From Tardiphaga sp. (GTDB taxonomy: Bacteria > Pseudomonadota > Alphaproteobacteria > Rhizobiales > Xanthobacteraceae), in contig JAQGJF010000154.1 in the NCBI GenBank assembly GCA_028290765.1, positions 1 to 6,759 on the forward strand: a stretch of 6,759 bases of DNA, read 5' to 3'. The translations under genes were made by a program, and so were the position numbers. Position 1 is the stretch's first letter. Each line of letters begins with the position of its first letter. The notes beneath the pieces were generated by a model, which saw only the letters and a program-made list of their open reading frames with translations, made no database searches and had not been told where the DNA came from. Below are positions 1-6,759 of the stretch, piece after piece.

Positions 1-175
1 CCGCTCCTGCATCAGTTTCTGGGCTTTCTGGGGATCGTTCCAGAGATTGGGGTCTTCGGAGAGCTTGTTCAGTTCCGCCAGGCGTGCGGTGGATGCATCA
101 ACGTCAAAGATGCCTCCTCAGCAGCCCGACTGACTGCTTGATCTCTTCGACAAGGCGTTCGATTTCAGCGCGCAT
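1..175 (-). CDS. prfB: Peptide chain release factor 2 (RF2), 5' part, with programmed +1 frameshift
   Basis: RF2 recognises UGA and UAA stop codons in the ribosomal A site and triggers peptide release. Only the N-terminal 58 residues are in the window; the gene continues past the left edge, so the SPF and GGQ motifs are not visible. Reading from the ATG at 175, the zero frame gives 23 codons (MRAEIERLVEEIKQSVG..., ending RRHL) and then TGA at 106-104. Skipping the T at 106 continues in the +1 frame with DVDASTARLAELNKLSEDP and then the LWNDPQKAQKL segment, which matches the N-terminal helical region of bacterial RF2. The full product therefore needs the recoding event annotated separately. 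A weak Shine-Dalgarno stretch (GAGAAA, 183-178) precedes the ATG. The gene lies 98 bases downstream of mrcA on the same strand, so co-transcription is possible. The high confidence rests on the combination of RF2 sequence and frameshift site. Confidence 0.95.
103..118 (-). promoter_or_regulatory. RF2 programmed +1 ribosomal frameshift site
   Basis: Read on the minus strand the site is AGG AGG CAT CTT TGA C. It has an internal Shine-Dalgarno-like AGGAGG (118-113), a three-base spacer, the slippery Leu codon CTT (109-107) and an in-frame TGA (106-104) followed by C. This is the same architecture and spacing as the E. coli prfB site (AGGGGG TAT CTT TGA C). In the known mechanism, scarce RF2 lets the ribosome pause at UGA and shift +1 to make full-length RF2, while ample RF2 terminates after the short peptide. 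Here that peptide would be 23 residues. The motif is seen directly; the autoregulation is inferred from the family. Confidence 0.95.
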
Positions 176-273
176 GGTTTCTCAAATCTGCGGCCCGAGC
201 CGCCATTGCGATGTGAGGGATGTAGCGGCGGGCGTCGCAAAGCGCAACGCCGTATTCGCGTACTCCAGATGCC

Positions 274-2946: not shown

Positions 2947-4236
2947 TCAATTGGTTGGGCCGGCCGATACCAGCCGCTTGGCAAAGAAGGCGTCCACCGC
3001 CTGCGCCATCGAGCCGACCGTCTTGGACCGCCAGTTCTCCGACACCAATTGCTGCAGATCGCCCTTGTTGGAAACATAGCCGAGTTCGATCAGGACCGAC
3101 GGCACGTCGGGCGCCTTCAAAACCTTGAAGCCGGCAGATTTGAGCGGGTGCTTGTGCATCCGGACCGAGCTTTTCATCTCGCCCATCAGAAGCCGGGCAA
3201 AGCGGTTCGAGAACGTCTTGGTCTCGCGCTGCGCCAGATCGATTAGGATGTCGGCGACGTCGGTCGGCTCCTCGGTCAGGTTGACGCCACCGATCGCATC
3301 GGCCCGATTTTCCGATTCCGCCAGCCGTTCGGCCTCGGCGTCCGAGGCGCGGTCGGACAGCGTGTAGATCGTGGCGCCCTGGGCGTCGCCTTCGCGGCGC
3401 GGCAACGCATCGGCGTGGATCGACACGAACAGAGCGGCCGACTGATTGCGCGCCATCCGCACGCGTTCGCCGAGCGGGATGAAGGTGTCGTCGGTTCGGG
3501 TCATGACGACACGGTATTTGCCGCTCTTCTCGATCCGGTCGCGCAGCGCCAGCCCAAATCCCAGCACCAGGTTCTTTTCGGTTTCGCCGCCGGCCTGGGT
3601 GCCGTTATCGATGCCGCCGTGCCCCGGATCGATGACGACCACCGGACGGATATCCGCCGATGGCGCGGATTTCGCCGTGCCGGTGGCGTCGGCCGCAACG
3701 CCGGCGGTTTCGATCGCCGGCCGCAATTCGGGGCGATTTTCGACCGCGAGCGACTGCACAAAGGTGGTCCGGTCCACTGCTTCGAGATCAATGATCAGCC
3801 GCGCCGGCTGGCCATTGGCGGAATCGAGCACATAGGCTTTTTCGATTTTGGCCGGTCCGGTCAGATCGAACACGATCCGCGAACCTCCCGGCATCACCAG
3901 ACCGTAGCGGAACGCCTTGATCAGCCCGCGCCCGGTGGCGCCGAACTCGGCACCAAGGCGGAATGTGGTTTGCGGCAGATCGACCACCACGCGATATGGA
4001 TCGGCAAGTGCAAAGGCGCGGAGCTGGACCGTCCGGTCGAGGTCGAGAATGAACCGGGTTCGCTTGTCGTCGCCGGCTACGCGCACGTCCGAGGCGACTG
4101 GAAAACTGGCAACAACCTCCGGGCGAGTCAACTCGCTTCCCGCAGCTTGGGTGGAGTCAGGCCGCAAGCACAGCATTGCTGCAGCGCACACAAGCGCCGC
4201 TCCAAACAAAACGGTATGATTTGCGCGGCTCGCCAC
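2947..4236 (-). CDS. amiC: Periplasmic N-acetylmuramoyl-L-alanine amidase (AmiC type)
   Basis: Zinc amidase that cuts the bond between MurNAc and the L-Ala of the stem peptide, splitting septal peptidoglycan during daughter-cell separation. Numbering is from the GTG start (429 aa; E. coli AmiC is 417). A signal peptide covers about residues 1-31, with a hydrophobic core around LFGAALVCAAAML and a TQA-A cleavage-like site. An AMIN domain (about 50-150) would target the protein to the septum, and a low-complexity linker covers about 160-193. The Amidase_3 domain (about 197-420) has zinc ligands His206 (PGHGG), Glu220 (ETEKN) and His274 (SIHAD), and catalytic Glu384 (LIELGY). The helical insert at about 299-347 (AERLAESENRADAIGG and onward) matches the autoinhibitory segment of AmiB/AmiC enzymes that EnvC/NlpD/DipM-type activators relieve. 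The frame also has a TTG start at 4245, but GGAGG lies only 1 base before it and 10 bases before the GTG, so GTG is preferred. A CtrA box lies about 50 bases upstream. Confidence 0.95.
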   Translation of the reverse strand: MASRANHTVLFGAALVCAAAMLCLRPDSTQAAGSELTRPEVVASFPVASDVRVAGDDKRTRFILDLDRTVQLRAFALADPYRVVVDLPQTTFRLGAEFGATGRGLIKAFRYGLVMPGGSRIVFDLTGPAKIEKAYVLDSANGQPARLIIDLEAVDRTTFVQSLAVENRPELRPAIETAGVAADATGTAKSAPSADIRPVVVIDPGHGGIDNGTQAGGETEKNLVLGFGLALRDRIEKSGKYRVVMTRTDDTFIPLGERVRMARNQSAALFVSIHADALPRREGDAQGATIYTLSDRASDAEAERLAESENRADAIGGVNLTEEPTDVADILIDLAQRETKTFSNRFARLLMGEMKSSVRMHKHPLKSAGFKVLKAPDVPSVLIELGYVSNKGDLQQLVSENWRSKTVGSMAQAVDAFFAKRLVSAGPTN

Positions 4237-4246
4237 GAATCCCAAG

Positions 4247-4788: not shown

Positions 4789-4940
4789 GCGTCGCCTTGC
4801 AGCGGGTTCGGGTTCGGTACGGCGCCCCGGGTTGCGTTTCGGCCTTCCCCTCACCCCCGAATCAGGTGGACCGTCGCGTCACCCGGCTGCGCGACATGCG
4901 CTTGCCGTCATGCGCGCCCTCCGCCGTCAAGAGCTCCAAA

Positions 4941-6759
4941 ATGCCCAACAAAATGTTGATCGATGCCACCCACCCGGAAGAGACCCGGGTCGTTGTGGTG
5001 CGCGGCAATCGCGTCGAAGAATTTGATTTTGAAACCGCCCAGCGCAAGCAACTGCGCGGCAACATCTATCTCGCCAAGGTTACGCGGGTAGAGCCGTCGC
5101 TGCAGGCGGCCTTCATCGAATACGGTGGCAACCGCCACGGCTTCCTGGCCTTCAGCGAAATCCACCCCGACTATTATCAGATCCCGGTCGCCGACCGTCA
5201 GGCGCTGATCGAGGCGGACGAGCGCGCCCATCGCGAAGCCGAGGAAGAATCCGAAAACCGCTCCAACCGCCGCCGTCCGCGGCATCGCACCTCGCGCCGC
5301 CGCGGCAGTGGCGAACGGGTGCAGAGCGAGGTCATCGAGAATGCGGCTTCCGACCCGTCGCAAACCGCGCAGCCGCACGACCACGAGCACGGCGAAGCGG
5401 GCCATGTCCACGCCCACGACGCCGAACATCATCCGGCCGACGCCGACCATGCGGATCATCATGACCATGAAGGTCATGAGCATGATCACGACCACGAAGG
5501 TCATCACGATCACAACCATGACCATGCGCACGACCATGACGATACGCACGGCCATGCGCATGCGGCGACCGAGTCCGACGCCCCGGCTGCTTCCCAACCG
5601 GCGATGCCGGCTCTGGCGAGCTTCGATCCCTACGCTCCTTCCGAACCGGCCCCGGTGGCGGCGAGCGCAGATCTGCAGGATGAGCATGCGCGTGAAAACG
5701 CCGCCCATGCCGACGACGCCCCGCATCCCGAACACGCGGAAGCCGACCACGCCGAAACCACGCACGGCGAACACGCCGCCACCGCGCCGCAAGGCGACGA
5801 GCATCACGCCCAAGAGGCGATGGATGGCGAGGATGACGATGACGGCGAGGAAGCCGAGGAAGACATCGTCGAATCCGTCGGCGGCGACGACGTCATGGAG
5901 GAAGTGCCGGAACGGGCCTTCCGCCCACGCCGCCAATACAAGATTCAGGAAGTCATCAAGCGCCGCCAGGTGATGCTGGTGCAGGTGGTCAAGGAAGAGC
6001 GCGGCAACAAGGGCGCCGCGCTGACCACCTATCTGTCGCTGGCCGGCCGCTATGCCGTGCTGATGCCCAACACCGCGCGAGGCGGCGGGATCAGCCGCAA
6101 GATCACCTCCGCCCAGGATCGCTCCAGGCTGAAGGAAGTGGTGCAGGATCTCGACGTGCCCGAAGGCATGGGGATCATCCTGCGCACCGCCGGCGCCTCC
6201 CGGACCAAGCCCGAGATCAAGCGCGACTTCGAATATCTGATCCGGATGTGGGAAACCGTCCGCGACATGACCCTGAAGTCGCAAGCACCGACCCTGGTCT
6301 ATGAAGAGGGATCGCTGATCAAGCGGTCGCTGCGCGACCTTTACAACAAGGAAATCGACGAAATCCAGGTCGCCGGCGAAGCCGGCTACCAGGAAGCCCG
6401 CGACTTCATGCAGATGCTGATGCCGACCAACACGCGGGCGGTAAAGCTCTATCGCGACGGTCAGCCGCTATTCTCGCGCATGGGGGTCGAGAGCCAGCTC
6501 GATGCGATGTTCTCGCCAACCGTGCAACTGCGCTCCGGCGGCTACATCGTCATCAACCAGACCGAGGCGCTGGTCTCGATCGACGTCAATTCGGGCCGTT
6601 CGACCCGTGAACATCACATCGAGGACACCGCGCTCAAGACCAATGTCGAGGCCGCCGAGGAAGTCGCGCGGCAACTGCGGTTTCGAGATCTGGCGGGCCT
6701 GATCGTCATCGATTACATCGACAAGGACGAGAAGCGCAACAATCGCGCGGTCCAGCGCA
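4941..6759 (+). CDS. rne: Ribonuclease E, N-terminal catalytic part, with a large His-rich S1 insertion
   Basis: Endoribonuclease that starts mRNA decay and processes rRNA/tRNA precursors, and is the usual scaffold of the degradosome. 606 codons are visible; the gene runs off the right edge, so the Zn-link cysteines and C-terminal scaffold are not seen. The frame is open throughout. The start MPNKMLIDAT aligns with E. coli MKRMLINATQ, and AAGAG (4929-4933) lies 7 bases before the ATG. By comparison with E. coli: RNase H-like segment about 1-35, S1 domain about 36-86 resuming at about 331-370, 5' sensor about 371-460 with Arg415-Thr416 (E. coli R169/T170), second RNase H-like segment about 461-524, then the DNase I-like catalytic domain with Asp548, Asn550 (SIDVN) and Asp591 (VIDYID), matching D303, N305 and D346. 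The insertion at about 87-330 splits S1 into Arg-rich (107-126), His/Asp-rich (146-207), Ala/Pro/His-rich (210-292) and acidic (295-321) stretches. All visible catalytic residues are intact. Confidence 0.97.
   Translation, partial: MPNKMLIDATHPEETRVVVVRGNRVEEFDFETAQRKQLRGNIYLAKVTRVEPSLQAAFIEYGGNRHGFLAFSEIHPDYYQIPVADRQALIEADERAHREAEEESENRSNRRRPRHRTSRRRGSGERVQSEVIENAASDPSQTAQPHDHEHGEAGHVHAHDAEHHPADADHADHHDHEGHEHDHDHEGHHDHNHDHAHDHDDTHGHAHAATESDAPAASQPAMPALASFDPYAPSEPAPVAASADLQDEHARENAAHADDAPHPEHAEADHAETTHGEHAATAPQGDEHHAQEAMDGEDDDDGEEAEEDIVESVGGDDVMEEVPERAFRPRRQYKIQEVIKRRQVMLVQVVKEERGNKGAALTTYLSLAGRYAVLMPNTARGGGISRKITSAQDRSRLKEVVQDLDVPEGMGIILRTAGASRTKPEIKRDFEYLIRMWETVRDMTLKSQAPTLVYEEGSLIKRSLRDLYNKEIDEIQVAGEAGYQEARDFMQMLMPTNTRAVKLYRDGQPLFSRMGVESQLDAMFSPTVQLRSGGYIVINQTEALVSIDVNSGRSTREHHIEDTALKTNVEAAEEVARQLRFRDLAGLIVIDYIDKDEKRNNRAVQR
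5376..5561 (+). repeat. His/Asp-rich low-complexity tract in rne (codons 146-207)
   Basis: This stretch encodes 26 histidines in 62 residues, mostly as HD, HE and HA dipeptides (for example HDHEGHEHDHDHEGHHDH). CAT and CAC codons are mixed, which argues against very recent slippage. Such patches in other proteins (ZnuA-type loops, nickel and cobalt chaperones, metal efflux proteins) bind Zn, Ni or Co. Metal binding here is inference. Nine more His are scattered through codons 249-289. Confidence 0.85.
5463..5516 (+). repeat. Imperfect 27-base tandem duplication within the His-rich tract
   Basis: Two adjacent 27-base units (5463-5489 and 5490-5516) begin GACCATGAAGGTCAT and GACCACGAAGGTCAT, 14 of 15 bases identical, and then diverge. 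They encode the repeated peptide DHEGH. The multiple of three keeps the reading frame, consistent with growth of the tract by duplication. Confidence 0.55.

What the first reader, a model, noticed from the sequence alone, without database searches (positions are those of the whole stretch)
5196..5930. RNase E whose S1 RNA-binding domain carries a roughly 245-residue insertion with an extreme His/Asp tract
Aligned by eye to E. coli RNase E, the flanking S1 segments (NIYLAKVTRVEPSLQAAFIEY before; QVMLVQVVKEERGNKGAALT after) are well conserved, and catalytic D548/D591 sit about 245 residues later than D303/D346. The extra residues hold 35 His, 26 of them within codons 146-207. Enlarged S1 insertions occur, to my knowledge, in other alphaproteobacterial RNase E proteins, but a metal-chelator-like tract inside the domain that holds the RNA substrate is unusual. 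Hypothesis: binding of Zn, Ni or Co changes RNA affinity or condensate/degradosome behaviour, linking mRNA decay to metal status. It may instead be a passive disordered loop.
Basis: partly seen in the sequence, partly recalled or inferred. Interest (0 to 1): 0.72.

Follow-up and report, generated by a model that had tools for sequence, protein, structure and literature searches.

The report
Histidine-rich RNase E insert in Bradyrhizobium clade
In Bradyrhizobium and its close relatives the main RNA-degrading enzyme carries, in a floppy loop next to where it holds RNA, a long histidine-rich stretch that evolution keeps and that looks like a metal-binding (or acid-sensing) segment, although no experiment has yet shown what it does.

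Summary
Residues 86-330 (5196-5930) interrupt the S1 domain with 245 aa holding 37 His, 26 of them in residues 146-207. D548 and D591 are the catalytic aspartates.

The insertion is known: alphaproteobacterial RNase E carries an acidic, largely disordered S1 insert (Caulobacter, PDB 4OXP). What my searches did not find described is its histidine. Of 298 RNase E sequences compared, all 63 of one Bradyrhizobium/Afipia/Rhodopseudomonas-type clade (window included) have 13-44 insert His; the nearest sisters have 5-8, the other 235 a median of 3. The disordered C-terminal region stays near 0.9% His.

Changes at His codons are mostly synonymous, and His/Gln swaps are rare where Asp/Glu swaps are free, so His is being kept. 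High His recurs elsewhere (18 of 235 rows). Two clade genomes also carry HDHDH in CobW, NicO, cation-efflux and other metal-linked proteins. AlphaFold2 on a relative gives the tract very low confidence, as for disorder.

Most likely it is a low-specificity transition-metal ligand near the RNA channel; a proton sensor is not excluded. Metal control of mRNA decay is untested. His number varies threefold, and hydrogenase content does not track it.

The parts
4941..6759 (+). rne, RNase E, 606 residues then cut by the window end
   Evidence: TIGR00757 416.9 bits over cut-off 325.95; PF10150
5046..5183 (+). first part of the S1 domain (residues 36-81)
   Evidence: match to E. coli S1 structure 1slj, query 36-80
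5187..5270 (+). start of the S1 insert: conserved predicted helix (residues 83-110)
   Evidence: AlphaFold2 of relative L004: helix 83-110, block means 66-87; window model helix 83-108 (poor model overall)
5259..5318 (+). Arg-rich block of the insert (residues 107-126)
   Evidence: sequence; first 45 insert residues hold 27.8% Arg across 63 clade members
5376..5561 (+). His/Asp tract, residues 146-207, 26 His
   Evidence: imperfect tandem units of 15, 18 and 27 nt at 67-83% match
5685..5807 (+). second, looser His cluster, residues 249-289, 9 His
5823..5864 (+). acidic block (residues 295-308)
   Evidence: last 45 insert residues 46% Asp+Glu in the clade
5865..5936 (+). conserved end of the insert (residues 309-332, VESVGGDDxxEEVPERxFRPRRQ)
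   Evidence: clade consensus; aligned to the 4OXP chain; G314 and R325 invariant in 53 sequences
5937..6050 (+). S1 domain resumes (residues 333-370)
6582..6584 (+). catalytic Asp, residue 548
   Evidence: invariant in 53 sequences
6711..6713 (+). catalytic Asp, residue 591
   Evidence: invariant in 53 sequences

Best explanation
An ordinary RNase E whose known alphaproteobacterial S1 insert became, most simply once on the stem of the Bradyrhizobium-Afipia-Rhodopseudomonas-type clade, a disordered His/Asp/Glu-rich, nearly Lys- and Cys-free loop. Shown: real, in frame, clade-wide in the sample, restricted to this insert and not the C-terminal disordered region, constrained to keep His. Predicted only: disorder. 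Inferred: the loop binds transition metal ions (Zn, Ni, Co or Cu; low specificity, several per chain; if the enzyme is a tetramer like E. coli's, the window's form has 148 insert His per tetramer) beside the RNA channel. It would keep free metal off the Mg2+-dependent active site and degradosome partners and, when loaded, partly neutralise and cross-link the acidic insert, changing RNA access or condensate behaviour. Buffering and protection is the likelier half; regulation of mRNA decay is the less likely half.
For: 63 of 63 clade members have 13-44 insert His and form a monophyletic group on a FastTree tree without the insert, support 86; all 63 share the >=13 His state and the nearest sisters do not. 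Insert His 11.1% against 0.9% in the C-terminal region; insert higher in 59 of 59 clade proteins measured. His codons in 31 disjoint clade pairs: 82 synonymous third-position transitions against 5 and 9 amino-acid-changing transitions at positions 1 and 2, ratio 0.085, bootstrap 0.036-0.158. His/Gln swaps 10 against 82 synonymous, Asp/Glu swaps 85 against 86; Fisher 9e-11. His spacing of 2 and 5 enriched in the clade, in 36 mutually dissimilar clade tracts and, more weakly, in the 18 outside His-rich rows. At least 13 His also in 18 of 235 other rows; the state needs at least 16 changes over the tree. HDHDH frames of two clade genomes: of 14 found, 10 were scanned and match CobW (2), NicO, cation efflux, nitrile hydratase alpha, cupin (2), a phosphoesterase, Cpn60, and 1 nothing. 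Tract region pLDDT under 50 in an otherwise confident model of L004. Cu2+ bound by His in Caulobacter RNase E and BR-body protection under copper stress (PMC12510024, passages and discussion).
Against: No metal was measured. His count varies 13-44 and differs by about 10 on average between clade members beyond the closest pairs; 15 of 63 have fewer than three HxH pairs and L131 has none. The constraint is not peculiar to His of this clade: Asp codons of the same inserts give 0.128 and His codons in inserts of 58 pairs outside the clade 0.14 (0.054-0.30), overlapping 0.085. The test cannot separate metal binding from protonation or another imidazole role, and part of the deficit of His-to-Tyr/Arg may be avoidance of those residues in an acidic loop. 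NiFe hydrogenase: 8 of 34 clade, 0 of 8 other His-rich, 16 of 77 remaining genomes. The published Caulobacter copper site lies in another part of the protein and that work reports no Zn binding. In Caulobacter part of the insert was helical in the crystal although predicted disordered, so disorder here is only a prediction.
Confidence: 0.45

Rival explanations
1. Proton sensor: with Asp/Glu constant and Lys/Arg nearly absent, His is almost the only positive charge available in the middle of the insert; acidification protonates it, turns the loop from repelling to attracting RNA or tunes condensates.
For: Mid-insert Lys 0.0%, Arg 1.7%, His 14.9%, Asp+Glu 27.1% in the clade; His is kept against Gln.
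Against: Spacing preference of 2 and 5 and sharing of HDHDH with metal-handling families are not expected of a pure pH sensor. Across other lineages His does not clearly replace Lys/Arg (Spearman -0.15, p 0.08).
Confidence: 0.2
2. Neutral or nearly neutral filler: a disordered spacer whose repeats expand and decay by slippage, His being tolerated.
For: Imperfect tandem units at 67-83% match; His number and arrangement change fast; inserts of 44-329 aa outside the clade; absence of losses inside the clade is weak evidence alone, only about 0.7 changes being expected there at the outside rate.
Against: Non-synonymous to synonymous ratio 0.085 at His codons and no His/Gln exchange comparable with Asp/Glu; 63 of 63 retention; mean His difference levels off near 10 instead of growing with distance; C-terminal disordered region has not gained His.
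Confidence: 0.2
3. Protein-partner segment: the insert docks a helicase or other degradosome partner and His is part of that interface.
For: In Caulobacter RhlB binds the catalytic-domain fragment that contains the S1 insert (PMC4245959, passages); the two ends of the insert are strongly conserved.
Against: The conserved ends, not the His-rich middle, are what an interface would preserve; the clade consensus shows no conserved linear motif in the middle.
Confidence: 0.12

Closest known systems
S1-domain insertion of alphaproteobacterial and plant RNase E (Caulobacter crescentus RNase E, PDB 4OXP, PMC4245959)
   Same: Same place in the S1 domain, charged and acidic, predicted disordered with a helical element, conserved ends.
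   Different: Published range about 50-150 aa, here 245 (44-329 outside the clade by my boundaries); 37 of the 245 residues are His here, against a median of 3 His per insert in the 235 rows outside the clade.
Cu2+-binding Caulobacter RNase E and BR-bodies (PMC12510024)
   Same: RNase E of an alphaproteobacterium binding a transition metal through His, with a proposed protective role in the degradosome condensate.
   Different: That binding was measured on residues 451-898 with one His per copper; the S1 insert was not in the construct, and zinc was not bound.
His-rich metal-handling tracts (CobW/COG0523, NicO, cation-efflux proteins; HypB and Hpn-like proteins elsewhere)
   Same: HDHDH-type runs, His with Asp/Glu, seen in a CobW protein of each of two clade genomes and in NicO and cation-efflux proteins of one of them, G034.
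   Different: Here the tract sits in a global ribonuclease, not in a transporter or metallochaperone; no metal data. HypB and Hpn comparisons are recalled or from a search listing only.

Membership tests
RNase E/G family | Rne/Rng catalytic core and catalytic aspartates | tested here: met
   TIGR00757 over its cut-off, PF10150, D548 and D591 invariant; L004 model matches E. coli RNase E first, Foldseek E 2e-46, though whole-chain superposition is poor (TM 0.4-0.6, rmsd 15-18 A). The window piece matches NCBI's equivalog NF008074 below its cut-off, 353.8 of 908 bits, and full-length L003 does too, 476.5.
Alphaproteobacterial RNase E S1 insertion | inserted at the same place of the S1 domain | tested here: met
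Alphaproteobacterial RNase E S1 insertion | high share of charged residues and predicted disorder | tested here: met
   Asp+Glu 29.8% of clade inserts; residues 113-323 of L004 nearly all with pLDDT under 50
Alphaproteobacterial RNase E S1 insertion | length of about 50-150 aa as published | tested here: not met
   245 aa, clade 200-283; the published range is exceeded by many rows outside the clade too (131 of 235 have 150 aa or more), so I treat it as descriptive rather than defining
Alphaproteobacterial RNase E S1 insertion | RhlB binding near the insert | not testable with these tools
   needs pull-down
His-rich metal-binding tracts | dense His with HxH spacing and acidic neighbours | tested here: met
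   window; clade; 15 of 63 have fewer than three HxH pairs
His-rich metal-binding tracts | binds metal ions | not testable with these tools
   no biochemical data
Hydrogenase-nickel maturation link | co-occurrence with NiFe hydrogenase | tested here: not met
   full-length PF00374 matches in 8 of 34 clade, 0 of 8 other His-rich, 16 of 77 remaining genomes (counted; fragments not counted; low power)

The most novel reading that the evidence does not exclude
RNase E of the whole Bradyrhizobium-type clade is a direct metal (or proton) switch on global mRNA decay: loading of the His/Asp loop beside the RNA channel changes substrate access and condensate state, so that the transcript pool responds within minutes to metal supply or acid without a transcription factor, and the same device has arisen repeatedly in other alphaproteobacteria.
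Probability: 0.15. Interest if true: 0.85.

Novelty: new variant of a known kind. Interest (0 to 1): 0.57.

Why it matters
The role of the S1 insert was called not understood in PMC4245959 (passages), which cites that deleting it from Arabidopsis RNase E greatly reduced activity and places RhlB binding on the fragment that holds it. A clade-wide, constrained, recurrent His-rich version gives a testable handle: it predicts that this insert carries ligand chemistry, and it connects with the 2025 report that RNase E condensates protect Caulobacter from copper. If true, mRNA decay in a group that includes nitrogen-fixing symbionts would be coupled to metal supply.

Tried and rejected
Considered and set aside. 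(1) Frameshift or wrong-frame artefact: rejected, the frame is open and both flanks are conserved in the relatives compared. (2) Antisense gene on the long minus-strand ORF 4908-6284: not tested as a gene; by reasoning only, the frequent third-position changes on the plus strand would alter its protein. (3) Recent slippage array: repeats are imperfect, 67-83% match. (4) General His richness of the clade's genomes: HxHxHxHxH also gave 40 matches in G008 (genome of L036, titled Xanthobacteraceae bacterium 501b), whose rne insert has 0 His. (5) Codon effect: CAT share of His codons 0.50 in clade inserts against 0.49 in the following part of rne; third-position G+C is lower in the insert, 0.72 against 0.81. 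(6) Nickel for hydrogenase: no association seen. (7) The tract alone against PDB sequences gave no match, expected for low-complexity sequence. (8) The first AlphaFold2 job, on the truncated window protein, was poor, mean pLDDT 52; repeated on relative L004 with its full catalytic part. (9) Rfam found nothing at gathering thresholds in the window. (10) No whole genome is held for the window, so its own other His-rich proteins were not examined.

Literature: searches for RNase E with 'histidine-rich' (9 papers), with S1 domain added (1 paper), and with zinc, metal binding, degradosome and histidine (7 papers) listed no paper whose title or shown abstract describes a His-rich S1 insert; only PMC CC0, CC BY and CC BY-SA papers are held, so subscription papers are unseen. 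Papers: PMC4245959 passages; PMC12510024 passages, outline and discussion section; PMC12691583 passages; PMC4287336 passages; all others listing only.

Rows dropped: of 337 records (336 loci plus the window) I left out L081-L110 (pattern-search loci), merged identical proteins of the remaining 307 to 300, and two (L218, L308) lacked the N-terminal match, leaving 298. Only part of the hits were used: 30 automatic loci in each (some shared between them), plus 60, 40 and 40 regions chosen from their lists. Of 14 HDHDH frames four (L341, L348, L349, L351) were not scanned.

Full report
WHAT IS THERE. The window carries, on the minus strand, the start of prfB, a class A penicillin-binding protein (274-2763; Transgly and Transpeptidase domains) and an AMIN/Amidase_3 amidase (2947-4245), and on the plus strand rne from ATG 4941 to beyond the window end. 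Residues 86-330 of RNase E (5196-5930) are 245 aa with 37 His, 31 Asp, 35 Glu and 43 Ala; 26 His are in residues 146-207 and 9 in 249-289. D548 and D591 are invariant in an alignment of 53 sequences. The flanks align to E. coli RNase E and to the Caulobacter S1/5'-sensor structure 4OXP on both sides of the gap. By DNA the closest held locus is L004, titled Bradyrhizobium sp. isolate LY.8, at 80-89% in pieces.

THE INSERT IS A KNOWN THING. [quoted passage not shown] RhlB binds the fragment holding it, and deletion of the insert in Arabidopsis is cited as greatly reducing activity. In my sample inserts outside the clade run from 44 to 329 aa and inside it from 200 to 283.

THE HISTIDINE IS A CLADE TRAIT. 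Of 300 distinct proteins, 298 had both ends. Sixty-three, window included, have catalytic identity of 0.92 or more to the window (cut at 0.915); the 30 that come from named records are titled Bradyrhizobium, Afipia, Rhodopseudomonas, Bradyrhizobiaceae, Xanthobacteraceae or Rhizobiales. All 63 have 13-44 His in the insert, median 28; the other 235 have a median of 3, range 0-29, and 18 of them have 13 or more. On a FastTree tree built without the insert the 63 are monophyletic (support 86) next to L145 and L146 (8 His each) and L147 (5). The state of 13 or more His needs at least 16 changes over the tree; since all 63 share it and the sisters do not, one is most simply placed on the stem and the rest lie outside, direction not told. 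With a cut of 10 His the minimum is 24 changes, with 5.5% His 25. At the rate of change outside, only about 0.7 changes would be expected inside the clade, so the absence of losses is weak evidence by itself; the codon test carries more weight.

IT IS SPECIFIC TO THE INSERT. The C-terminal disordered region of the same proteins has 0.9% His in the clade and in the others alike, against 11.1% and 2.7% in the insert; the insert exceeds the C-terminal region in 59 of 59 clade proteins and 153 of 218 others. Genome-wide His richness is not the cause: HxHxHxHxH is found in 10 of 10 genomes tried, including G008, whose rne insert (L036) holds no His. Cys is absent from 63 of 63 clade inserts and 233 of 235 others. 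In the middle of the insert the clade has 14.9% His, 27.1% Asp+Glu, 1.7% Arg and 0.0% Lys.

IT IS KEPT. In 31 non-overlapping pairs of clade members, counting columns with well-aligned neighbours, His codons show 82 synonymous third-position transitions, but 5 transitions to or from Tyr and 9 to or from Arg: ratio 0.085, bootstrap 0.036-0.158; without the neighbour filter 0.079. For comparison: Asp codons of the same inserts 0.128; His codons of the catalytic part 0.088 on few counts and Asp codons there 0.005; His codons of the C-terminal region 0.75 (filtered) or 0.29 (unfiltered) on very few counts; His codons in inserts of 58 pairs outside the clade 0.14 (0.054-0.30). So the ratio shows constraint, but not one peculiar to this clade's His. 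The sharper result is His/Gln exchange, a third-position transversion, seen 10 times, while Asp/Glu exchange by the same kind of mutation is seen 85 times against 86 synonymous changes (Fisher 9e-11). A merely polar spacer would not make that distinction. Limits: alignments of low-complexity sequence are imperfect, and avoidance of Tyr and Arg in an acidic loop may contribute.

PATTERN. In the densest 62-residue windows His pairs at distances 2, 5 and 7 are over-represented and direct neighbours under-represented; distances 2 and 5 hold in 36 mutually dissimilar clade tracts and, with z 2.1 and 4.9, in the 18 outside His-rich rows, where 7 does not. Forty-eight of 63 clade members have three or more HxH pairs; L131 has none. 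Tandem units in the window are imperfect. His number differs by 2.8 on average between the closest clade pairs and by about 10 beyond, without further growth. The window's four nearest rows on the tree have 13-18 His against its 37.

SAME MOTIF ELSEWHERE. HDHDH sites of two clade genomes (G034 and G105) outside rne were fetched as 16 regions. Frames holding HDHDH were found in 14 of the 16; 10 of those 14 were scanned: CobW twice, NicO, cation efflux, nitrile hydratase alpha, cupin twice, a phosphoesterase, Cpn60, and one without a match. Most of these are metal-handling or metal-using families by general knowledge. The window's own genome is not held.

STRUCTURE. AlphaFold2 on the window protein itself was poor (mean pLDDT 52). 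On relative L004 with its whole catalytic part it is confident in the core; residues 83-110 form a helix and nearly all of 113-323, which hold its His tract, are below 50. Foldseek puts E. coli RNase E first (E 2e-46) and finds 4OXP at 4e-17, with poor whole-chain superposition. The tract is therefore predicted, not shown, to be a flexible loop rooted at the S1 domain.

MECHANISM. Most likely a low-specificity metal-binding loop beside the RNA channel (0.45), with buffering and protection likelier than regulation. A proton-sensing loop (0.2), a nearly neutral spacer (0.2) and a partner-binding segment (0.12) are the rivals. The nearest published mechanism is in Caulobacter, where an RNase E construct of residues 451-898 binds Cu2+ through His and BR-bodies protect against copper (PMC12510024); that construct lacks the S1 insert and did not bind zinc. 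A hydrogenase-nickel link was tested and not seen.

NOVELTY. A new variant of a known kind: a His-rich version of the alphaproteobacterial RNase E S1 insert. None of the three literature searches named under Tried and rejected listed a paper describing it.

Noticed in passing
window 1-177, minus strand: Start of prfB (release factor 2) with the classic programmed +1 frameshift site: an AGGAGG stretch shortly before CTTTGAC, the RF2 frame resuming as DVDASTARLAELNKL (the site read, gene name and motif recalled).
   Followed up: partly
L154, L149, L182, L213, L297, L206, L229 and others (18 rows): High-His S1 inserts (13-29 His) in alphaproteobacterial rows outside the clade, several of them distant from it: the trait recurs.
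   Followed up: partly
L344:1042-1653 and L350:1516-2058: Small cupin proteins with a dense His/Asp/Ser tail at the N-terminal end, one in each of two clade genomes.
   Followed up: no
L352:1514-2950: A Cpn60 chaperonin ending in a His-rich tail (HDHDHHGGDMDF), reminiscent of mycobacterial GroEL1 (the comparison from a search listing).
   Followed up: no
S1 inserts of all 298 RNase E rows: Near-total absence of Cys (2 of 298 rows have any) and, in the Bradyrhizobium clade, of Lys in the middle of the insert.
   Followed up: partly
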